Part shown: one piece after another, positions 13,766 to 31,428 of the stretch
Numbering within the stretch: the first letter of the stretch is position 1
Layout of the letters: the number at the start of each line of letters is the position of its first letter
Source: Nitrospirota bacterium
Lineage (GTDB): Bacteria > Nitrospirota > Thermodesulfovibrionia > Thermodesulfovibrionales > UBA6898
Length of the DNA: 36,669 nucleotides
Direction: 5' to 3'
NCBI GenBank assembly: GCA_003252075.1
Contig: QKDO01000053.1
Coordinates: 1 to 36,669 of the forward strand
Made by a program: the position numbers and the translations under genes
Notes under the pieces: generated by a model
What the model was told of the DNA's origin: nothing
Databases searched by the model: none
What the model saw: only the letters and a program-made list of their open reading frames with translations

Positions 13766-14551
13766 TCATCCCCTTGCCTTTTCCATCAGGTATTGCCTCA
13801 GCGCGAATACGGCCCCTGCCAGCTGATCTGTTTCCGGCAGGGACGCAATGATACGCTCGATATAACTCTGTTCTATAGCAAGCCGGAACGATGCCGGGAA
13901 GTTTAGGTCATATACCCAGGTGAGCTGCATGATTCTGAAATCATTCAGTGTTCTCAGTGCTGAAACGGTTGCAAGTCTCTTTTCTGCAAGGCACGCGACA
14001 ATGGCATCGGTATGTTCGGGCGTATCAGGAAGACCAAGTCCCGCCGCCGATTCCCGTTCTGCATTGTCCTTTTCATAATATTCGGCGAATACCCTCCAGA
14101 TATCTAGTTTGTCAGCATCGCGGACCAGTTTAAGGAAGAAGATCGTCTCAGCATCGAGACCGCCTGGGACAGTGGGTGTATTATGAAACCTTACGACATC
14201 CATGATAATCTCCTGCTCTTTAACCGGAAGGTTGCTCAGGATGTTTTCGTTCTTGATCACCTCCGCGCCAAGCCTGCCGTGGTTAACAGAGACGCTGTCT
14301 CGAAATGTTTTATATTGAGCATATTGGGGGAAACGGCCGATATCGTGCAGCAGCCCTATGGCTTCTGCCATCATGACCTTGTTCCTGTTCCTCAGCAGTA
14401 CCCCCGATATTGAGAGCATGTTGGCAGCTACGTTATAGGTATGAGCTTCTTTCAGAACAATATTCTGGTGGTCCTTCTCATTCGCCGAATGAAATTTTCT
14501 GCAATAGTTTGAGACCCACTGCCGGAGGCTGAGGAGATCGATGGTATCCAT
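13766..14551 (-). CDS. HD-domain phosphohydrolase
   Basis: 261 residues with an HD-superfamily core. A His ahead of the motif (EAHTYNVAANML) is followed by GLLHDIGRFPQY (the HD pair), then NHGRLGAEVI and a late Asp (VRDADKLDIWRVF). These are the metal ligands of a phosphohydrolase acting on nucleotides or signalling phosphates. No GYP motif of c-di-GMP phosphodiesterases is seen, and no other domain is fused. It lies between the exported rhodanese and the TlpA gene, on the same strand, with short gaps (15 and 9 bases). The substrate is unknown. Confidence 0.85.
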   Translation of the reverse strand: MDTIDLLSLRQWVSNYCRKFHSANEKDHQNIVLKEAHTYNVAANMLSISGVLLRNRNKVMMAEAIGLLHDIGRFPQYAQYKTFRDSVSVNHGRLGAEVIKNENILSNLPVKEQEIIMDVVRFHNTPTVPGGLDAETIFFLKLVRDADKLDIWRVFAEYYEKDNAERESAAGLGLPDTPEHTDAIVACLAEKRLATVSALRTLNDFRIMQLTWVYDLNFPASFRLAIEQSYIERIIASLPETDQLAGAVFALRQYLMEKARG

Positions 14552-14566
14552 GACGAAAATGGCCAG

Positions 14567-14977
14567 CTACTTCGATTCCACGGGGTATCCGGCATTCAGC
14601 CACTCATACCAACCACCTTTGAGCGCATACACCCTGGTAAAGTCTCTTTTCATGAGCATCCGTGCCGTCCAGGCACTGGTGCGTTCGTCAGGTCAACTGC
14701 AGTAAAGCACAATAGTCTTGTCTTTCGGATATTTGGCCGTCCACAACTCCCATTCGTCAGCGTCCTCCCATGTGGCTCCTGAGATCTTCTTGCCAGACTT
14801 CCTCCACTCTTTTTCCGTTCGAACGTCTATCACCACAAGTGCAGGGTTGCCCAGCATGCCCCGGAGTTCTTCCTTGCTCATCCTGGGCACGTCAGCAGCA
14901 GATGAACTTGATATAATTCCCGTCAGGACAGGGAAAACGACAAGTATAAGTGATGCAAGTAAATACTTCTTCATCAT
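14567..14977 (-). CDS. Exported rhodanese with UGA-encoded (selenocysteine) catalytic residue
   Basis: ATG at 14977 opens a frame with a signal sequence (KKYLLASLILVVFPVLTG, cleavage near SSSAADV) and a rhodanese domain (LVVIDVRTEKEW, then KTIVLYCS). The next codon is TGA at 14695-14693. The frame continues for 41 more sense codons to TAG (14567), giving PDERTSAWTARML and ALKGGWYEWLNAGYPVE, which is a complete rhodanese C-terminal half. With the UGA read, the protein is 136 residues with Sec at position 95. The active loop is then YCS-U-PDERTSA, matching the common YCSCPxExxSA rhodanese type with U exactly at the catalytic Cys. A single TGC-to-TGA change would explain a pseudogene, but the intact downstream frame and a SECIS-like hairpin argue for recoding. 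It heads a three-gene set with the HD and TlpA genes. Probable role: periplasmic sulfur or selenium transfer. Confidence 0.85.
14656..14682 (-). promoter_or_regulatory. SECIS-like hairpin in the rhodanese mRNA
   Basis: Starting 11 bases after the UGA, the minus strand folds as GCACCAGUGCC - UGGAC - GGCACGGAUGC. It has a perfect 5-bp upper stem (GUGCC/GGCAC), an interrupted lower stem with GCA/UGC pairs, and a 5-base apical loop UGGAC that starts 21 bases after the UGA. A G in the first two loop positions and a UGA-to-loop distance of 16-37 bases are the known features of bacterial SECIS elements, and both hold here. SelB binding is inferred. Confidence 0.7.
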
Positions 14978-15074
14978 AGGGACCCCGCTTATTTCAATTT
15001 CACCATGTTTTATTATAGCGTATCTTTCGGCCAGGAGGAAAACAGAGCACAGGCAGATGGTATAATGAACATCA
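14978..15074. promoter_or_regulatory. Divergent promoter region
   Basis: Between the rhodanese (minus) and the membrane-protein gene (plus). On the minus strand TATAAT (15017-15012) would start transcription near 15005, about 28 bases before the rhodanese ATG. On the plus strand TATAAT (15061-15066) overlaps the first candidate ATG of the next gene. Neither has a good -35 box. Confidence 0.4.
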
Positions 15075-15469
15075 TGGAAAGGCATAAGCCGCATACCGTG
15101 CCACGCTCTGTTATCTATGCCTTCTTCAGCCTCGGGCTCATTTCAGCAATTGCCTTCAGGGGTATCATTATCTTTCAACATATAGAACCGTCATGGGTGC
15201 GTCCGGTCTGGTATGTGGGGACGATCGGTTATTTTCTTTTCTTTCTCTATCGATATAGGATTTCCAGGAAACGGAAGCATGCGATCGAGACCTTCCGGCT
15301 TATCGACAAACTGAAAGCTAATGCATGCCTTGAGGACGAAGACAGGGAAGTCGTGCTCTACCTGCTGTCGTCCATCAGGTTTTCGCTTGAGGACATTAAC
15401 TATGCGCTCATCTTTATCCTATCGATTCTCGCAATCGGCGCTGACATGGTCCTGACGGTAATGAAGTAG
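15065..15469 (+). CDS. Small conserved-looking membrane protein
   Basis: About 134 residues with three hydrophobic segments: VIYAFFSLGLISAIAF, PVWYVGTIGYFLFFLY and, at the C-terminus, YALIFILSILAIGADMVL. Between the second and third segments is a charged cytoplasmic-type region (YRISRKRKHAIETFRLIDKL). ATGs at 15065 and 15074 are both possible starts; a TATAAT overlaps the first, which would favour the second (a leaderless message). I do not recognise a named family. It is divergent from the rhodanese set. Confidence 0.6.
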   Translation: MNIMERHKPHTVPRSVIYAFFSLGLISAIAFRGIIIFQHIEPSWVRPVWYVGTIGYFLFFLYRYRISRKRKHAIETFRLIDKLKANACLEDEDREVVLYLLSSIRFSLEDINYALIFILSILAIGADMVLTVMK

Positions 15470-23517: not shown

Positions 23518-23618
23518 TTATAGCCCGTTAGAACTGCATCCGTAAAGCAAGCATTCAGATGTTGGGAGCAATTCCCTTCGAATGTATATTTGAACCTAGT
23601 ATGAAAGGGGGAAGTAAC

Positions 23619-23954
23619 ATGGCAACAATGGATTTTCAGGGAAAGTCAATCGAGGTGGACGATGATGGTTATCTGCTGAACCTTGATGATTGGTCAAAAG
23701 AGCTTGCAGATCATCTTGCAAGCTTGGACGGCGTGACCCTTACGCCTGCACACTGGGAGGTTATCAACTTCCTGCGCGACTATTACAAGCAGTACCAGAT
23801 CGCTCCGATGATCAAGATCCTCGTTAAAGAGATCGGAAAGGCTATGGGCCCGGAAAAAGGCAACACCAAGTACCTGTATGAGCTGTATCCGGGTGGACCT
23901 GCTAAGCAGGCATGTAAATATGCAGGGCTTCCGAAACCTACGGGTTGCGTATAG
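23619..23954 (+). CDS. dsrC: DsrC, sulfur-carrier protein of dissimilatory sulfite reduction
   Basis: 111 residues from ATG 23619, which has AAGGGGG nearby; an upstream in-frame ATG at 23559 would add a non-homologous stretch. The C-terminal swinging arm is complete, with Cys99 and the penultimate Cys110 in CKYAGLPKPTGCV. True DsrC proteins need both cysteines to form the trisulfide with sulfite reductase, whereas TusE has only the last. The gene is a unit of its own: promoter 23488-23517, terminator 23984-24024. This fits a protein needed at higher amount than its partners. dsrAB is not in the window. Confidence 0.96.
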   Translation: MATMDFQGKSIEVDDDGYLLNLDDWSKELADHLASLDGVTLTPAHWEVINFLRDYYKQYQIAPMIKILVKEIGKAMGPEKGNTKYLYELYPGGPAKQACKYAGLPKPTGCV

Positions 23955-23983
23955 CCCTTTGTCTGTAAATGCGGCGAATCGAA

Positions 23984-24024
23984 ACAGTACCCCATGGAAT
24001 ATTCTGTGGGGTACTGTCTTTTAT
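23984..24024 (+). terminator. Terminator after dsrC
   Basis: A perfect 11-bp stem (acagtacccca / tggggtactgt) with a 12-base loop is followed by cttttat. It separates dsrC from the dsrMKJOP operon. Confidence 0.9.
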
Positions 24025-24104
24025 CACGCTCCTGCAGTAGTAGTATCAGTTTCTCACGATACAGGTTCTCATGCCACAGGATTTGGGGGAGATTGTTGTA
24101 ACAG

Positions 24105-24668
24105 ATGAGCCTGAAGAATATCCTTTCGGAAAAAAAAGATGAGCTTCTTGCATCCTGGTTTGACAGGATCCTTGATACCTATCCTGTTGAAACTGCTAAG
24201 TTCCTGAAAAACCAGAAAGACCGGTTTGCTAATCCGGTTGGGCAGGCAATCCACAAAGGGATAGGAGATATTTTCCAGGAACTGCTCCAGAATGGTGATA
24301 TTGAAAAAGTTTCAGGCTTTCTCGATAGCATTATCAGGGTGAGAGCTGTTCAGGAATTTTCCGCTTCACAGGCCGTGGCCTTTATCTTTTTCCTGAAAAG
24401 CGTTATCAGAGATGGTCTTGCGGACATATCGCTGACCCCGGAGCTTTACGATGAACTGGCGACCCTCGAATCACAGATCGATTCGCTTGCTCTCATAGCC
24501 TTCGATATCTTCATGCAGTGCAGAGAAAAACTCTACGATATAAAAGCGAATGAGATGAAGAACATGACATACCGGCTCCTTCAGCGTGCGAATATGGTTA
24601 CGGAAATCAAGGATGCGGAAAAAGAAACCAATTTTATCGCAATACACAAGAAAGAGGTAAACTCATGA
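24105..24668 (+). CDS. RsbRD N-terminal domain protein upstream of dsrM
   Basis: 187 residues, all helical, starting MSLKNILSEKKDELLASWFDRILDTYP. This is the RsbRD N-terminal (RsbU_N-like) domain, related to stressosome sensors, and it is often encoded just before dsrM in sulfate-reducing lineages. No STAS domain, signal peptide or cofactor motif is present. The stop overlaps the dsrM start (ATGA), so it belongs to the dsrMKJOP operon. Function unproven; a regulatory or sensing role is inferred. The 150-base stretch before it holds the dsrC terminator and no clear promoter. Confidence 0.8.
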   Translation: MSLKNILSEKKDELLASWFDRILDTYPVETAKFLKNQKDRFANPVGQAIHKGIGDIFQELLQNGDIEKVSGFLDSIIRVRAVQEFSASQAVAFIFFLKSVIRDGLADISLTPELYDELATLESQIDSLALIAFDIFMQCREKLYDIKANEMKNMTYRLLQRANMVTEIKDAEKETNFIAIHKKEVNS

Positions 24669-25657
24669 AAACCGTACTACCCTTCATTGCAGTTGTGATA
24701 CTCGTACTGCTTCCATTGTTTGGGGTGACGGTGGCACATCAGACACAGATTTTCTTTGGGGTCGTCGTACCCTATACTGCGGTGGCGGTATTCGTGTTTG
24801 GCTTTATCTACCGCATCCTGCAGTGGGGAAAATCTCCCGTGCCATTCTGCATCCCGACGACGTGCGGTCAGCAGAAGTCTCTCCCGTGGATTAAGCAGGA
24901 TAAGCTTGAAAACCCTGTGACCACGATGCAGGTCGTGGGAAGGATGCTCCTTGAGGTGCTGGTCTTCCGGTCCCTCTTCAGGAACATGAAGACGGAGATG
25001 AAGGAAGGAAAGGCGGTCTACGGGTCGGAGAAACTGCTTTGGCTTGCAGGGCTGGCATTTCACTGGTCGTTCCTCTTCATTTTTGTGCGGCACTACCGGT
25101 TTTTTGTGCAGGATGTGCCGACGGCAATTCAGCTGATGGAAGGAATGGACAGCTTTTTCCAGATTGGCGCCCCGCTTTTCTATATGACTGATGCGGTAAT
25201 CCTGGGTGCGGTTACATTCCTTCTTGTACGGAGGGTCTATCTTCCGCAAATACGATATATATCGCTTGCTGCAGATTTCTTCCCGCTCTTCCTGATCCTG
25301 GCTATCGCGATTTCGGGCATCCTCATGAGATATTTCTTTAAGACGCATATCGTAGCTGTCAAGCAGCTTGCCATAGGTTTGGTAAGCCTGAATCCAACCA
25401 TTCCGGAGGGCATCGGGGCCATATTCTATGTTCATCTCTTCCTTATCTGCGTGCTCCTGATGTACTTCCCTTTCAGTAAGCTTATGCATATGGGCGGGGT
25501 CTTCTTGAGCCCGACAAGGAACATGGCCAACGACAGCAGAATAGTCCGGTATATCAATCCCTGGAACTATCCTGTACATGTGCATACCTATGAAGAGTAT
25601 GAGGATGATTTCCGGGAGAAGATGAAAAAGGCCGGGTTGCCGGTCGAGAAGGAGTAA
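24665..25657 (+). CDS. dsrM: DsrM, haem b membrane subunit of the DsrMKJOP complex
   Basis: 330 residues with six or more membrane helices. It matches the NarI/DsrM family (respiratory nitrate reductase gamma type), which binds two haems b and exchanges electrons with menaquinone. Visible are WLAGLAFHWSFLFIFVRHYRFF, with candidate haem histidines, and FYVHLFLICVLLMYFPFSKLMHMGG. A conserved N-terminal loop PFCIPTTCGQQKS is characteristic of DsrM. AAAGAGG precedes the ATG. It transfers electrons to DsrK on the inner face. DsrK follows after two bases. Confidence 0.93.
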   Translation: MKTVLPFIAVVILVLLPLFGVTVAHQTQIFFGVVVPYTAVAVFVFGFIYRILQWGKSPVPFCIPTTCGQQKSLPWIKQDKLENPVTTMQVVGRMLLEVLVFRSLFRNMKTEMKEGKAVYGSEKLLWLAGLAFHWSFLFIFVRHYRFFVQDVPTAIQLMEGMDSFFQIGAPLFYMTDAVILGAVTFLLVRRVYLPQIRYISLAADFFPLFLILAIAISGILMRYFFKTHIVAVKQLAIGLVSLNPTIPEGIGAIFYVHLFLICVLLMYFPFSKLMHMGGVFLSPTRNMANDSRIVRYINPWNYPVHVHTYEEYEDDFREKMKKAGLPVEKE

Positions 25658-25659
25658 TC

Positions 25660-27273
25660 ATGGCGAAATTACCAAAACCAGAAGAACTCTTGCAGATAAA
25701 CTATAATCCGCCGCCGACAGAAGATTGGATGGACAGGCCGGTCGAACTCAAGCAGGGTAATTTCTGCTGGGGTGCGAAAGGGAAGAACCTTGCAGCAGTA
25801 GAGTTTCCGAATGCCCGGGACTGGACCCCGGTCGAGGCAGACTGGAAGCTGCCGAAAGATTGGGAAGGTACGGTCCTTGAGGCTATGGCAGACCGGCTTT
25901 CAAAATACCGCTCATTTAAAGTCTTTATGGACATTTGTGTTAGATGCGGAGCCTGTGCTGATAAATGTCATTTCTTTATCGGGGGAGGCGACCCGAAGAA
26001 TATGCCGGTTCTCAGGGCAGAGCTTATGCGCTCGGTTTACCGGAAATACTTTACCACCGCAGGCAAGTACCTCGGCAAGCTGGCAGGTGCCCGCGAGCTC
26101 GACCTCAATGTGCTCAAGGAATGGTGGTACTATTTTTACCAGTGCACGGAATGCAGGCGCTGTTCGGTCTTCTGCCCCTATGGTATCGATACAGCGGAGA
26201 TCACGCTGATGGCCAGAGAGTTCACCAATCTCCTCGGTCTGAACACGGACTGGATATCCGGTCCGGTGGCCAACTGCTACATGAAGGGCAATCACCTCGG
26301 CCTTGAGCCACATGCCATCATGAACAGCATCGAGGGCATGATAGACGATATTGAGACCATAACCGGCATCAGGATAAACCCTTCTTTTAACAGAAAGGGC
26401 GCTGAGATCCTCTTTGTGACACCTTCGGGAGACCTTTTTGCAGACCCCGGGACATTCACCGCAATGGGATACATGATGCTCTTTCATGAGCTGGGCATTG
26501 ACTACACCTGGTCGACCTATGCATCAGAGGGCGGCAACTTCGGTTTCTTTACTTCAAACGAAATGGCAAAAAGACTGAATGCCAAGATTTACGCCGAAGC
26601 AAAGAGGCTCGGCGTGAAATATATCATCGGCGGAGAGTGCGGCCACATGTGGAGGGTTCTGAACCAGTACATGGACACCTGGAACGGGCCGGCCGATTTC
26701 ATGGAAGTGCCGAAATCCCCGATAACCGGTACGGTCTTCGACAATGCCGCCTCGACCAAGATGATCCATGTCACCGAGTTCACCGCAGACCTCATCAAGA
26801 ACAACAAGATTAAGCTTGACCCGAGCAGGAATGATGACCTGGTCATCACCTATCATGACTCCTGCAATACGGCCCGCGGCATGGGACTGCTCGAGGAGCC
26901 GAGGTATATTATCAATAGCGTCTGCAACAAGTTCCATGAGATGCCGGACAACACGATCAGGGAGCGGACCTTCTGCTGCGGCAGCGGAACCGGGCTGAAT
27001 GCGAGCGAAAATATGGAAATCAGGATGCGCGGGGGATATCCGAGAGCGAACGCCGTGAAGTTTGTCAGGGACAAGCATGGCGTAAACATGCTGGCCAACA
27101 TTTGTGCCATTGACAGGGCAACGCTCTCCGCCTCTATGGACTACTGGGTCCCTGGGGTGCGGGTCACCGGTGTGCATGAGCTTGTGGCAAATGCCCTGAT
27201 CATGACGGGAGAGAAAGAGAGGGAGACAAACCTCAGAGGCGAACCGCTCCCGGGGAAGGGAGGTAACGAATAA
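25660..27273 (+). CDS. dsrK: DsrK, iron-sulfur catalytic subunit of DsrMKJOP
   Basis: 537 residues. Two [4Fe-4S] ferredoxin motifs are seen: CVRCGACADKC (from residue 93) and CTECRRCSVFCPYG (from residue 162). The C-terminal half has CCG-domain motifs of the HdrD/GlpC type: GECGHMWR, YHDSCNTARG and TFCCGSG. In HdrD such motifs hold a non-cubane cluster that reduces a disulfide; in DsrK the substrate is thought to be the DsrC trisulfide or disulfide, on the cytoplasmic side. AAGGAG precedes ATG 25660. The stop overlaps the dsrJ start (TAATG). Confidence 0.95.
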   Translation: MAKLPKPEELLQINYNPPPTEDWMDRPVELKQGNFCWGAKGKNLAAVEFPNARDWTPVEADWKLPKDWEGTVLEAMADRLSKYRSFKVFMDICVRCGACADKCHFFIGGGDPKNMPVLRAELMRSVYRKYFTTAGKYLGKLAGARELDLNVLKEWWYYFYQCTECRRCSVFCPYGIDTAEITLMAREFTNLLGLNTDWISGPVANCYMKGNHLGLEPHAIMNSIEGMIDDIETITGIRINPSFNRKGAEILFVTPSGDLFADPGTFTAMGYMMLFHELGIDYTWSTYASEGGNFGFFTSNEMAKRLNAKIYAEAKRLGVKYIIGGECGHMWRVLNQYMDTWNGPADFMEVPKSPITGTVFDNAASTKMIHVTEFTADLIKNNKIKLDPSRNDDLVITYHDSCNTARGMGLLEEPRYIINSVCNKFHEMPDNTIRERTFCCGSGTGLNASENMEIRMRGGYPRANAVKFVRDKHGVNMLANICAIDRATLSASMDYWVPGVRVTGVHELVANALIMTGEKERETNLRGEPLPGKGGNE

Positions 27274-27671
27274 TGTACAATACCGGAAAGATTATAGCGG
27301 GGCTGGTGGTCTTCTTTATCCTGGCGACGCTGCCTTTCCTGCTGAACCTTGGCAAGGCAAATGCAAAGATAGAGCCGAGCATCGATACCCCTGAAATAAA
27401 CGCTATGCCAAAAAAACACTGTGTGGAACCGAAGGCATTCATGCGCTCAGAGCATATGCAGCTTTTGAATAATTGGCGCGACCAGGTGGTCCGTAACGGG
27501 AACCGGATCTATGTTGGTTCGGACGGCAACGAGTATCCGATCAGCCTTCAAAACACCTGCATGAAGTGCCATGCGAATAAAAAGAAGTTCTGCGACAAGT
27601 GTCATAACTATATGGCGGTGAAACCATACTGCTGGGGCTGCCATATCGCACCGAAGGAGAATGAGGCATGA
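27273..27671 (+). CDS. dsrJ: DsrJ, triheme periplasmic cytochrome c
   Basis: 132 residues. An N-terminal hydrophobic helix (IIAGLVVFFILATLPFLL) exports and anchors the protein. Three CXXCH haem sites are present: CMKCH (from 96), CDKCH (from 107) and CWGCH (from 120). A separate Cys50 (KHCVEP) lies where the unusual His/Cys haem ligand of DsrJ is expected. The three haems need the ccsA/resB-type machinery also seen in this window. It is the periplasmic redox part of the complex, of still uncertain donor or acceptor. It overlaps dsrO. Confidence 0.93.
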   Translation: MYNTGKIIAGLVVFFILATLPFLLNLGKANAKIEPSIDTPEINAMPKKHCVEPKAFMRSEHMQLLNNWRDQVVRNGNRIYVGSDGNEYPISLQNTCMKCHANKKKFCDKCHNYMAVKPYCWGCHIAPKENEA

Positions 27672-28471
27672 GCATGAACAGAAGACAATTCCTTAAATTA
27701 GCCAGTGCATCGACCATCCTGGGTGTTGGCGCCGCTTCTGTCATTAACAACATCAGCAATGGCAGTCTCGAGGCAGCGCAGATCCATCCTGATCCGAGGG
27801 CCCTCAAGGCGAAGCGGTGGGGCTTCGTGGTCGATGTCAGCAAGCTCACGACCGATGAGGACTACCAGAAGTGTATTGACGCCTGCCATGATATTCACAA
27901 TGTCCCGAACAATCCGAACCCACGGCATGAGGTCAAGTGGATATGGAAAGACACGTATGAGCATACCTTCCCCAACACTGCGGAAGACAAGATCATGAAC
28001 AGGGAACTTCAGGAGAAGAATTTCCTTCTCTTCTGCAACCACTGTCAAAATCCGGCCTGCGTCCGGGTTTGTCCGACCAAGGCGACCTTCAAACGCGAAA
28101 GCGACGGTATCGTAATGCAGGACATGCACCGGTGCATTGGCTGCAGGTTCTGCATGGCCGCATGCCCGTTTGGTGCGCGGAGTTTCAACTACACGGATCC
28201 ACGGCCGAACATCAAGGTGGAGAACAAGGAGTTCCCGACCCGCATGATCGGAGTTGTCGAAAAGTGTACCGCATGCTACGAACGGCTTGCCGTCGGTAAG
28301 CAGCCGGCATGTGCAGAGAAGTCCAATGGAGCGATCGTATTCGGTGATCTTGAGGACCCTAATTCCGAAGTGCGGAAACTTATCACTGAAAAGTATACGA
28401 TCCGGAGGAAGCCAGAACTCGGGACGCAACCGAGCATCTACTATGTGATTGGAGGTGGCGAGCATGCTTGA
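27668..28471 (+). CDS. dsrO: DsrO, periplasmic iron-sulfur subunit
   Basis: 267 residues with a Tat signal ([13 protein letters not shown]), so it is folded before export. The ferredoxin-like cluster motifs include [35 protein letters not shown] and [16 protein letters not shown], as in PhsB/DmsB-type four-cluster proteins. It carries electrons between DsrJ and the membrane protein DsrP. AAGGAG upstream; start overlaps dsrJ, and the stop overlaps dsrP. Confidence 0.94.
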
Positions 28472-29630
28472 AAAGGCTCTGAGCGGAAGCAACAGATACT
28501 GGGCATGGATATTCTTCCTGCTGGCGGTGATCGGTATCGGGTGCATCGCATATATGAAGCAGCTGAACGAAGGTCTGGGTATTACGGGATTGAGCAGGGA
28601 CGTATCCTGGGGACTGTATATCGGCCAGTTCACCTTCCTGGTTGGTGTTGCCGCATCTGCGGTGATGCTCGTTATCCCTTATTATCTGCATGATTTTAAG
28701 AAGTTCAGCAAAATCGTGATCCTCGGGGAGTTTCTTGCTGTTTCAGCCGTTATCATGTGTGTTTTGTTCATCATGGCTGATATGGGCCAGCCGATGAGGG
28801 TTGCCAATATCCTTCTCCATCCGACACCGGGGTCGATCGTATTCTGGGACGTGGTTGTCCTGAACGGCTACCTTTTGCTGAACATAGTCATTGGCTGGAC
28901 TACACTCGGCGCTGACCGCAAGGGGGTCAAGCCCCCTGATTGGGTCAAACCACTGATTTACCTTTCTGTCCCTTGGGCTGTCAGCATCCATACGGTCACG
29001 GCGTTCCTTTATGCGGGTATCCCCGGCAGGCACTTCTGGCTTACGGCTGTAATGGCGGCCCGTTTTCTTGCCTCGGCATTTTCAGGCGGTCCCGCACTGC
29101 TGATTCTTCTTGCTCTTCTGGTTCGGAAATTCTCAAAGTTCGATCCTGGGGCAGAAGCAATCCAGGCTGTTGGAAAAATCGTGACCTATGCGATGTTTGC
29201 GAACGTATTTCTCCTTGGGCTGGAATTTTTCACCGCGTTTTACAGCAATATACCCGGCCACATGCATCCCTTTCTGTATTTGTACACAGGCATAGATGGA
29301 CACACAAAGCTTGTCCCGTTCATGTGGATATCAAGTATTCTTGCGGTAGTTTCGCTCGCAATTCTCGTGTTTCCCCATCTCCGCAGGAACGAGAACATCC
29401 TGGCCTTTGCCTGCGCGATCTTGTTCATTTCTCTCTGGATCGACAAGGGCTTTGGGCTGATCATCGGGGGCTTTGTTCCCAATATGTTCGAGGGGATTAC
29501 CGAGTACTGGCCTACCTTGCTGGAGACGCTTATAACGATAGGGGTGTGGGCCATGGGCTTCCTTGTGCTGACAGTCCTGTATAAGGTAGCCATTGCGGTA
29601 AGGGAAGAAGATGCGGCAGTTGAGCATTAA
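28464..29630 (+). CDS. dsrP: DsrP, NrfD-type integral membrane subunit
   Basis: 388 residues from ATG 28464 (GGAGGT seven bases upstream); a longer frame start at 28449 is less likely. About ten membrane helices, matching the NrfD/DsrP family. Motifs seen include [16 protein letters not shown] and [28 protein letters not shown]. It oxidises or reduces menaquinol together with DsrO. The operon is complete in the order rsbRD-M-K-J-O-P, and a ferredoxin gene follows 80 bases later. Confidence 0.94.
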
Positions 29631-29710
29631 ACGGCATCATGATTTTTTGAGCTGTTTCCATAAAGACAGACAAACCATTTTTTGGTTAATGAAATAAAGG
29701 AGGAAACATT

Positions 29711-29896
29711 ATGTATCTTGTAGCTGTCAATGCGGATGTATGTACGGGATGTGAAGAATGTGTGAACAACTGTCCGGTAACGGTCTTTGACATGGTTGAT
29801 GGCAAAGCGTCGCCGACAAGAGCCGGCGATTGTGAAGGCTGCGAGACCTGCACGAGCGTCTGTCCGTCAGGTGCTGTTACGCTTACCGAGATGTAA
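29711..29896 (+). CDS. 2[4Fe-4S] ferredoxin
   Basis: 61 residues with two clusters: CTGCEECVNNCPVTVFD and, after a short acidic linker, CEGCETCTSVCPSGAV. AGGAGG upstream of ATG 29711. Small ferredoxins of this type follow dsrMKJOP in some lineages and may supply electrons to DsrK or DsrAB, but this one could serve any cytoplasmic electron transfer. It is followed by its own terminator, which ends the dsrM operon. Confidence 0.9.
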   Translation: MYLVAVNADVCTGCEECVNNCPVTVFDMVDGKASPTRAGDCEGCETCTSVCPSGAVTLTEM

Positions 29897-29909
29897 CAAG
29901 AGTTCAGAT

Positions 29910-29940
29910 GGGGCAGCCTGTCGGACTGCCCCTGTTTCTT
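29910..29940 (+). terminator. Terminator after the ferredoxin gene
   Basis: A 7-bp stem ggggcag / ctgcccc with a 9-base loop is followed by tgtttctt. It closes the rsbRD-dsrMKJOP-ferredoxin operon. Confidence 0.8.
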
Positions 29941-29993
29941 GATAGCAGGGTAGTGGGGCTGCAAGTTCATAAGTGGCAACAAAGGAGCGGATT

Positions 29994-30035
29994 AGATATT
30001 TTTATTTGACGCGTGAACTTGCTAACTGGTATAAA
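29994..30035 (+). promoter_or_regulatory. Promoter of the DsrH/E/F-TusA-like operon
   Basis: The -35 TTGACG (30006-30011) and the -10 TATAAA (30030-30035) are separated by 18 bases. They are preceded by AGATATTTTTATTTGAC (29994-30010), nearly the same as the dsrC promoter element. AGGAGGT and ATG 30077 follow. Confidence 0.75.
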
Positions 30036-30076
30036 AAACTGCTTTCCTCAAAATCCTTTACTTAGGAGGTGTTTCA

Positions 30077-30373
30077 ATGAAATTAGCTGTTCTCATGAGC
30101 GACTACAGAAACGGTATTGATATGATAGACAGGCTCAGTGCGGAATCGCTCGGCATCATCTTTGTCGGCAATGGCGTCTATCATGCGGCAGTAAAGGATG
30201 GTGGCAAGACCTCATCACTTCTTGACAAAAAAGCTAATTTTTATGCGCTTGCCGAAGACTTCGAGACCAGGGGGATAACTGCCGCAAATCTCGATAACAG
30301 GGTGAAGGCGGTCAACTACGGTGATGTGGTTGATATCATTTTCAATGATTATGAAAAAGTAGTCTGGATATAA
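30077..30373 (+). CDS. DsrH/TusB-like protein lacking cysteine
   Basis: 98 residues with the Rossmann-like alternation of the DsrEFH superfamily (MKLAVLMSDYRNGIDMIDRL; LGIIFVGNGVYHAA). Length and pattern fit the TusB/DsrH subunit, but the whole protein contains no cysteine, whereas classic DsrH has one conserved Cys. It may play a structural role in the heterohexamer. AGGAGGT lies seven bases before ATG 30077. First gene of a four-gene set with DsrE-like, DsrF-like and TusA-like proteins. Confidence 0.65.
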   Translation: MKLAVLMSDYRNGIDMIDRLSAESLGIIFVGNGVYHAAVKDGGKTSSLLDKKANFYALAEDFETRGITAANLDNRVKAVNYGDVVDIIFNDYEKVVWI

Positions 30374-30385
30374 AGGGAGGCGGAA

Positions 30386-30748
30386 ATGGGTAAATTGACC
30401 ATAGGAACATTTTCATCACTCGTAGGCTCACTGTCTCTTGACTTCTCGGTAAAGCTTGCTGAGGCTGCCGTGAAGAAGGGACACAAAGTTGATTTCTGGA
30501 TGTCCGGCAATGCCACCATGCTCGCGAAAAAAGGACAGAAGGCATTCAAAGACTATTCGTTTCTCGCAAAGACGATACAGGATCTCATTGCAACCGGTAA
30601 TTTCCAGATCTGCGCTTGCGAAGCATGCGCAGAGGCACGGGGGTATCATAAGGAAGACTGCCCCGACGGGTTTATACGGAAGAGCATGGACTGGTATCTG
30701 GCGAGCACCTTTGATGCGGATAGAGTCCTTCATATAGGAGGAGACTAA
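30386..30748 (+). CDS. DsrE/TusD-like sulfurtransferase subunit
   Basis: 120 residues of the DsrE fold (GTFSSLVGSLSLDFSVKLAEAAVKKG...VDFWMSGNA). The reactive region QICACEACAEARG holds Cys76, Cys78 and Cys81; the catalytic cysteine of Allochromatium DsrE is also Cys78. In that system DsrEFH takes sulfur from TusA and passes it to DsrC. GGGAGG precedes the ATG at 30386. The next gene starts one base after the stop. The ORF order (H-like, E-like, F-like, TusA) differs from the E-F-H order of sulfur oxidisers. Confidence 0.8.
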   Translation: MGKLTIGTFSSLVGSLSLDFSVKLAEAAVKKGHKVDFWMSGNATMLAKKGQKAFKDYSFLAKTIQDLIATGNFQICACEACAEARGYHKEDCPDGFIRKSMDWYLASTFDADRVLHIGGD

Positions 30749-30749
30749 T

Positions 30750-31163
30750 ATGGCGACAAAAAAACTTGCATTCATTGTTCGTTCACTCCCTTATAAAACT
30801 GAGGCATCGAGGCTTGCCCTGACGCATGCGATTGCAAGCCAGACTGTCGAGATCTACTTGAAAGACGGCGATCTTGTCGAAGCGTCTGTTTCATATGTCG
30901 GGGATGGTGTCCTTAACTGCCTGAAAGGGCAGCAAGGCATGAAACATTACGGCATCACGACTATCGAAGGGCATGCCAAGAATTCCCTTCTTCTTGACAT
31001 GAGAGTCCTCATATGCAAGGAAGACCTTAACAAATTCGGCCTTACCGAAGACAACATTCTGATGGACGCTGAGGACATCGGAGGAGAAACAAAAGCGAAC
31101 ATCGTTTCGTACAGCGAAATACAGAAGGAGATGGACGCAGCAACCCACATCCTTGTGTGTTAA
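30750..31163 (+). CDS. DsrF/TusC-like DsrE-family protein
   Basis: 137 residues of the DsrE/DsrF superfamily: LAFIVRSLPYKTEASRLALTHAIASQTVEIYLKDGDLV, then SYVGDGVLNCLKGQ. Cys57 and Cys89 are the internal cysteines, and Cys137 is the last residue. It is longer than the neighbouring DsrE-like protein. Whether it is the DsrF/TusC subunit or another DsrE-family paralogue cannot be decided from sequence alone. It has a GGAGGAG site directly upstream and is followed by the tusA-like gene with a 19-base gap. Confidence 0.7.
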   Translation: MATKKLAFIVRSLPYKTEASRLALTHAIASQTVEIYLKDGDLVEASVSYVGDGVLNCLKGQQGMKHYGITTIEGHAKNSLLLDMRVLICKEDLNKFGLTEDNILMDAEDIGGETKANIVSYSEIQKEMDAATHILVC

Positions 31164-31182
31164 TCAAAAAGGAGGAATATAT

Positions 31183-31428
31183 ATGGCAGATTTGAAGTCA
31201 CAGACACCGGCACAGACACTTGATGTATTGGGACGGGTATGCCCGTATCCGCTTGTTCTCACCAAAAAGGCTCTCGAGAAGCTCCCGAGCGGCGGTATCC
31301 TCAAGATTCTCTGCGATGCACCTGCATCAGCCGAGGACTCTCTCCCGAGGTTCGCGCAGGACAAAGGGATGCCGATTGAGGTCGTGAAGCTGGCTGACAG
31401 TTGGGAAATCTTTATTCAGAAGCCCTAA
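31183..31428 (+). CDS. tusA: TusA-like sulfur carrier protein
   Basis: 81 residues from ATG 31183 (AAGGAGG at 31169-31175). The CPxP motif of TusA/SirA proteins is present (LGRVCPYPLVLTKKALE, Cys20), followed by the family beta-alpha pattern (GGILKILCDAPASAEDSLPRFA). TusA carries a persulfide on that Cys and, in dsr systems, passes it to DsrEFH. A strong terminator closes the operon. Confidence 0.9.
   Translation: MADLKSQTPAQTLDVLGRVCPYPLVLTKKALEKLPSGGILKILCDAPASAEDSLPRFAQDKGMPIEVVKLADSWEIFIQKP

What the first reader, a model, noticed from the sequence alone, without database searches (positions are those of the whole stretch)
14567..14977. Exported rhodanese whose catalytic cysteine is encoded by UGA (selenocysteine)
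The minus-strand frame gives a signal peptide and rhodanese domain up to LYCS, then TGA (14695-14693), then 41 intact sense codons PDERTSAW...GGWYEWLNAGYPVE to TAG. Rhodaneses of this type read YCSCPxExxSA. The UGA falls exactly at the second Cys of that motif, which aligns with the catalytic Cys of the C-R-x-G-x-R-S loop. A hairpin with a perfect 5-bp upper stem and loop UGGAC starts 11 bases after the UGA, with the loop 21 bases from it, which fits bacterial SECIS rules. A selenol at this place would give a much more reactive sulfur/selenium carrier in the periplasm. Seen: frame, motif and hairpin. Known: YCSC rhodaneses and SECIS pattern. Inferred: decoding as Sec.
Basis: partly seen in the sequence, partly recalled or inferred. 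Interest (0 to 1): 0.9.

Follow-up and report, generated by a model that had tools for sequence, protein, structure and literature searches.

The report
Exported rhodanese with catalytic selenocysteine
A small exported sulfur-handling enzyme of a Nitrospirota bacterium carries selenocysteine, written as a UGA codon, at its catalytic position; this is real, but it belongs to a selenoprotein family that is already catalogued.

Summary
The minus-strand frame 14977-14567 encodes a rhodanese (PF00581) with one in-frame TGA at 14695-14693, in place of the second Cys of YCxC. That position aligns without a gap with the catalytic Cys of a solved rhodanese. In 57 distinct homologues (Nitrospirota, Myxococcota) the codon is TGA; two more have Cys. 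A hairpin meeting the rules of the bacterial SECIS model sits at a fixed place behind the TGA: 42 of 57 genes have a stem of at least 5 bp there, against 2.8 expected from synonymous codons, with compensatory silent changes. The genome has selA, selB and a selD that itself carries a TGA. Its tRNA-Sec gene is missing from this draft MAG but present in all 7 other genomes of the genus.

It is not new as a kind: the protein passes NCBIfam NF041203 ('rhodanese-related (seleno)protein', 164.5 bits, cut-off 115), listed in a 2026 review as CxU with one Sec. What appears undocumented in the sources held is that 13 of 57 homologues carry TGA at both positions (UxU), gained or lost several times, with one hairpin within range of both UGAs. 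Substrate and function are inferred, not shown.

The parts
14567..14977 (-). CDS of rhodanese-family selenoprotein, 136 residues with Sec at 95, TAG stop; apparent signal peptide (about residues 1-28, by eye)
   Evidence: NF041203, 164.5 bits, cut-off 115; AF2 domain pLDDT about 87-97
14693..14695 (-). In-frame TGA read as selenocysteine (Sec95), at the catalytic Cys position of rhodaneses
   Evidence: ungapped alignment with the Cys of 6mxv
14699..14701 (-). Cys93 codon (TGC), first position of the CxU motif; TGA in 13 of 57 homologues
14656..14682 (-). bacterial SECIS-like hairpin: upper stem 14676-14672 with 14666-14662, loop UGGAC 14671-14667, lower stem from +11
   Evidence: MFE -13.9; covariation; synonymous-codon control; rules in PMC13188914
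13766..14551 (-). HD-domain protein (PF01966), next gene on the same strand; order conserved in L025, L026, L027
13175..13756 (-). Apparently exported TlpA/ResA-like thioredoxin with WCPPC; same gene order in L025-L027; possible reductant of the rhodanese (inferred)

Best explanation
The gene encodes an exported single-domain rhodanese whose catalytic residue is selenocysteine. Supported by comparison: SelB with Sec-tRNA reads the UGA at 14695-14693, directed by a hairpin 21 nt behind it, and the product is a full-length CxU rhodanese of family NF041203. Inferred: in the periplasm the Sec takes sulfane sulfur from a donor such as polysulfide or thiosulfate to form a selenenyl-persulfide. Cys93, two residues upstream, can then resolve it as a Cys-Sec selenenylsulfide, and a TlpA-like protein encoded two genes downstream could re-reduce that. 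I put the decoding at about 0.96, a sulfur-transfer or persulfide-reduction role at about 0.5, and the TlpA partner at about 0.3.
For: Frame, motif and domain across the TGA. NCBIfam NF041203 above cut-off. Same TGA in six independent assemblies from two phyla and 57 distinct sequences in all, with CxC in two others. Ungapped alignment of Sec95 with the catalytic Cys of 6mxv; rhodanese fold. Hairpin at one fixed place: 42/57 with at least 5 bp against mean 2.8 and maximum 9 in 400 synonymous samples; Ser codon before the loop 57/57 AGY; U-A to C-G compensatory change at the silent pair col 21-33. dN/dS after TGA 0.06-0.09. selA, selB, selD in the genome, selD itself with a TGA in CAGUAAK. tRNA-Sec in 7/7 other genomes of the genus. 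Rhodanese-HD-TlpA order kept in L025-L027.
Against: tRNA-Sec was not found in this genome's own assembly, although the assembly is a 146-contig draft. The synonymous-codon null uses pooled codon usage from these loci, and related sequences are not independent. No protein-level evidence exists. The TlpA neighbour is not kept in the more distant homologues, so the partner is weakly supported. Signal peptide and redox chemistry were not tested.
Confidence: 0.93

Rival explanations
1. A pseudogene or sequencing error: a Cys rhodanese broken by a TGC-to-TGA change.
For: The TGA differs from a Cys codon by one base, and two homologues do carry Cys.
Against: Same TGA in independent assemblies across two phyla; dN/dS 0.06-0.09 behind it; no TAA or TAG seen at this column; silent-site hairpin conservation.
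Confidence: 0.02
2. UGA is a true stop and the truncated 94-residue protein is the functional product, with the 3' part translated only by occasional read-through.
For: Selenium limitation would give this product some of the time (general knowledge).
Against: The 3' part encodes the active-site loop, helix and last strands of the rhodanese fold and is at least as constrained as the 5' part.
Confidence: 0.02
3. UGA is reassigned to another residue such as Trp or Gly genome-wide.
For: None found; a frame open under another code would look the same locally.
Against: Window ORFs of known genes end normally at TGA or other stops under table 11; selA/B/D are present; the column alternates with Cys; the hairpin is specific to this place.
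Confidence: 0.01
4. Sec is decoded, but the protein works mainly as a thiol/selenol oxidoreductase (peroxide or disulfide chemistry through the CxU pair), not as a sulfur transferase.
For: Both motif positions are exchangeable between Cys and Sec; TlpA-like neighbour; most uncharacterised selenoproteins are thought to be redox enzymes (PMC9312934).
Against: Rhodanese fold with Sec at the sulfur-transfer position; a dsr/TusA/DsrE sulfur gene set in the same window.
Confidence: 0.4

Closest known systems
NCBIfam NF041203 rhodanese_LYCAU, 'rhodanese-related (seleno)protein'; = Rhodanese-like domain-containing protein form 3 (CxU) in PMC13188914; COG0607 form 2 (CxU, TKB26178.1) in PMC9312934
   Same: Domain, length, CxU motif, one Sec at the second position; score 164.5 against cut-off 115
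   Different: Nothing that would set the window protein apart. Some homologues differ by a second Sec (UxU).
TsoB (NF045694), rhodanese/DsbD fusion-like selenoprotein, UxxxxU
   Same: Sec in a rhodanese active site; its C-terminal part weakly matches the TlpA-like protein encoded next door here
   Different: Large fusion protein, different motif; window protein scores 25.8 against cut-off 805
Ordinary single-domain rhodaneses (GlpE, PspE; structures 6mxv, 3tp9, 2hhg)
   Same: Fold and place of the catalytic residue
   Different: Cys, not Sec; 6mxv has no second Cys two residues before it

Membership tests
NF041203 rhodanese_LYCAU (CxU selenoprotein) | Full-protein HMM score above the curated cut-off (115 bits) | tested here: met
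   164.5 bits, profile positions 8-126 of 126
NF041203 rhodanese_LYCAU (CxU selenoprotein) | CxU motif with TGA at the second position | tested here: met
   Y-C-S-U at residues 92-95
Bacterial selenoprotein gene | SECIS hairpin: loop 3-9 nt, upper stem 4-16 bp, G in first two loop positions, 16-37 nt from UGA, MFE at or below -7.5 | tested here: met
   Loop 5 nt UGGAC, stem 5 bp, spacing 21, MFE -13.9 (rules in PMC13188914)
Bacterial selenoprotein gene | selB and selC (plus selA, selD) in the genome | tested here: inconclusive
   selA, selB, selD above cut-off; selC absent from this draft but in 7/7 other genomes of the genus
Bacterial selenoprotein gene | Cys/Sec alternation at the column in homologues | tested here: met
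   57 TGA and 2 Cys, L114 and L117
Bacterial selenoprotein gene | Sec present in the protein | not testable with these tools
   Needs 75Se labelling or mass spectrometry
Rhodanese sulfurtransferase | Rhodanese fold with catalytic residue at the loop start | tested here: met
   PF00581, AF2 and Foldseek, alignment to 6mxv
Rhodanese sulfurtransferase | Sulfurtransferase activity | not testable with these tools
   No assay; the residues after the active site (PDERTS) differ from CRxGxRS
TsoB (NF045694) | Fusion length and score above 805 | tested here: not met
   25.8 bits over the rhodanese part only

The most novel reading that the evidence does not exclude
In this rhodanese family the first Cys of the CxU motif is itself replaced by Sec in at least 13 of 57 homologues (YUxU), gained or lost several times. 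The active site is then a Sec-x-Sec pair, and two UGAs one codon apart are recoded by a single hairpin whose loop lies 21 and 27 nt behind them. The 2026 list gives this family one Sec (CxU); UxU is not mentioned in the papers read. The window gene itself is the single-Sec form.
Probability: 0.8. Interest if true: 0.5.

Novelty: new member of a known kind. Interest (0 to 1): 0.33.

Why it matters
It shows that standard gene calling would truncate this enzyme at residue 94, and it adds three copies in one Nitrospirota genome to a scarcely studied selenoprotein family. The wider family, where CxC, CxU and UxU all occur, is a natural series for asking what each Sec adds in a rhodanese and how one SECIS hairpin serves two nearby UGA codons.

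Tried and rejected
Rfam scan of 14400-15200 found no SECIS family; bacterial SECIS elements vary too much for this to count against. Pseudogene, true stop and reassigned UGA were considered and rejected on conservation. A missing selC as refutation was tested: the relatives have it, and the own genome holds an 86% identical piece of about 70 bases matching its 3' end and downstream at G000:C71:29653. In relative G001 an integrase-like gene lies beside tRNA-Sec, so an assembly gap at a mobile-element site is likely but not shown. One search was an argument error. The Haft and Tolstoy 2025 paper is not held, so UxU may be mentioned there. One search found no papers. The AlphaFold alignment had only 7 rows; the Cys93-Sec95 geometry could not be measured.

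Full report
Observation. On the minus strand, ATG at 14977 opens a frame that runs through MMKKYLLASLILVVFPVLTGIISSSSAAD, an apparent signal peptide judged by eye, and a rhodanese domain to LYCS. There it meets TGA at 14695-14693 and goes on for 41 sense codons to TAG at 14569-14567. Read through the TGA, Pfam PF00581 covers residues 35-128 at E 1.5e-14.

Homologues. A scan of genome contigs gave six close relatives: three Nitrospirota (98, 79 and 69% identical) and three labelled Deltaproteobacteria, placed in Myxococcota by treekit. All six have TGA at the same codon. A profile of these seven, searched over 396 genomes of the phylum with stops read through, gave matches in 107 genomes, including three in the window's own genome: C49, C86 and C96, each with one TGA. 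After extraction there were 59 distinct sequences with the Y-[CU]-x-[UC] motif: 44 CxU, 13 UxU and 2 CxC. The few TAA or TAG codons reported lie elsewhere in their frames, since L077 and L088 read YCTU and YUTU at the motif.

Position of the residue. In the profile alignment with the second domain of 6mxv, the second position of the motif falls on the Cys of LYCGSGFRSA with no gap between it and the following helix. The AlphaFold model is confident over the domain (block means 87-97), with strand 88-92, loop 93-98 and helix 99-109. The top Foldseek matches are rhodanese-domain structures, best E 3.5e-8. So Sec95 takes the place of the catalytic Cys, and Cys93 is an extra residue at the strand end.

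Hairpin. RNA folding of the 48 nt from the TGA gives -13.9 kcal/mol, z -2.16. The upper stem has 5 bp, the loop is UGGAC, and 21 nt lie between UGA and loop. This meets the bacterial SECIS model as stated in PMC13188914. Across 57 homologues aligned without gaps the stem stays at the same place. Column pair 21-33, two third codon positions, switches between U-A and C-G (24 and 21 distinct rows); sliding the partner strand by 1-3 columns loses the signal. Against synonymous codon sampling, a stem of at least 5 bp at that place is seen in 42 genes where 2.8 are expected (maximum 9 in 400 rounds). The Ser codon before the loop is AGY in 57 of 57, although pooled usage is about 39% AGY. Relatedness of the sequences inflates such counts, but coding constraint alone does not give this.

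Selection. Behind the TGA, dN/dS is 0.086 and 0.064 against L025 and L026, no weaker a constraint than in front of it (0.27 and 0.16); the third relative is saturated.

Machinery. The genome has selA (607 bits, C9), selB next to it (367 bits) and selD (341 bits, C5) above their cut-offs. The selD frame itself carries a TGA in SCAGUAAK, so a second selenoprotein gene is present. tRNA-Sec is not found above the Rfam cut-off; the best candidates are ordinary tRNAs. But all six genomes with the near homologues hold it at 70.9-75.2 bits, ARAGORN agrees, and so do 7 of 7 other genomes of the genus. The most likely reason is a gap in this 146-contig draft. selB and selC are the accepted signature of Sec decoding (PMC1273633).

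Known or new. The protein passes NCBIfam NF041203 'rhodanese-related (seleno)protein'. [quoted passage not shown] The window gene is therefore a new member of a known selenoprotein family.

What may be new. Thirteen homologues have TGA at both motif positions. They do not form one clade: the label needs 8 changes on the tree and at least 4 by well-supported branches. UxU members such as L093 still pass NF041203 (159.6 bits), while L110 and L108 fall below it. The hairpin loop lies 21 nt behind the second UGA and so 27 nt behind the first, within the 16-37 range for both. In some UxU members (L100, L102, L106, L108) the fixed-place stem is weak or was not recovered, so the single-hairpin reading does not hold equally for all. 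The term UxU does not occur in the 2026 review; one relevant paper was not held.

Mechanism. Supported by comparison: UGA decoded as Sec under a hairpin. Inferred: export, sulfane-sulfur chemistry on Sec95, resolution by Cys93, and reduction by the TlpA-like WCPPC protein encoded two genes downstream. The order rhodanese-HD-TlpA is kept in L025, L026 and L027 but not in the more distant homologues. The selenoprotein TsoB fuses a rhodanese to a part that weakly matches this TlpA-like protein, which is a hint, not a test. The same window holds DsrC, DsrE- and DsrH-like proteins, TusA and a membrane and iron-sulfur redox set of dsrMK type, so the organism probably handles inorganic sulfur.

Noticed in passing
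L030, L078, L088, L093, L095, L096, L100, L102, L106, L108, L109, L110, L111: Homologues with TGA at both positions of the motif (YUxU), arisen or lost more than once; one hairpin lies within SECIS range of both UGAs in most.
   Followed up: partly
L115, L122, L124 (about 1001-1381): A second kind of Sec rhodanese, YCRGxxU, with a strong hairpin with a GGUC loop behind the TGA; below the NF041203 and TsoB cut-offs, and CxxxxU is not in the 2026 review.
   Followed up: partly
L128:2496-3663; G000:C71:29653-29717: An integrase-like gene lies beside tRNA-Sec in relative G001, and the own genome holds a loose copy of the tRNA-Sec 3' end: the tRNA-Sec gene seems to be used as an integration site.
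   Followed up: partly
genomes G046, G113, G188, G204, G310: Some related genomes hold two tRNA-Sec genes above the Rfam cut-off, the second one weaker by roughly 9-18 bits.
   Followed up: no
window 23559-31428 +: DsrC, dsrMK-like redox proteins, DsrH- and DsrE-like proteins and TusA in one stretch: a dissimilatory sulfur gene set.
   Followed up: partly
L107 (G280:C1:1062669-1063007): A paralogue with UGA at the first position but Arg at the second (YUAR) and a broken 3' end; probably decaying.
   Followed up: no
L024:2600-3800 (G000:C5): selD with an in-frame TGA in SCAGUAAK, a second selenoprotein gene of this genome.
   Followed up: partly
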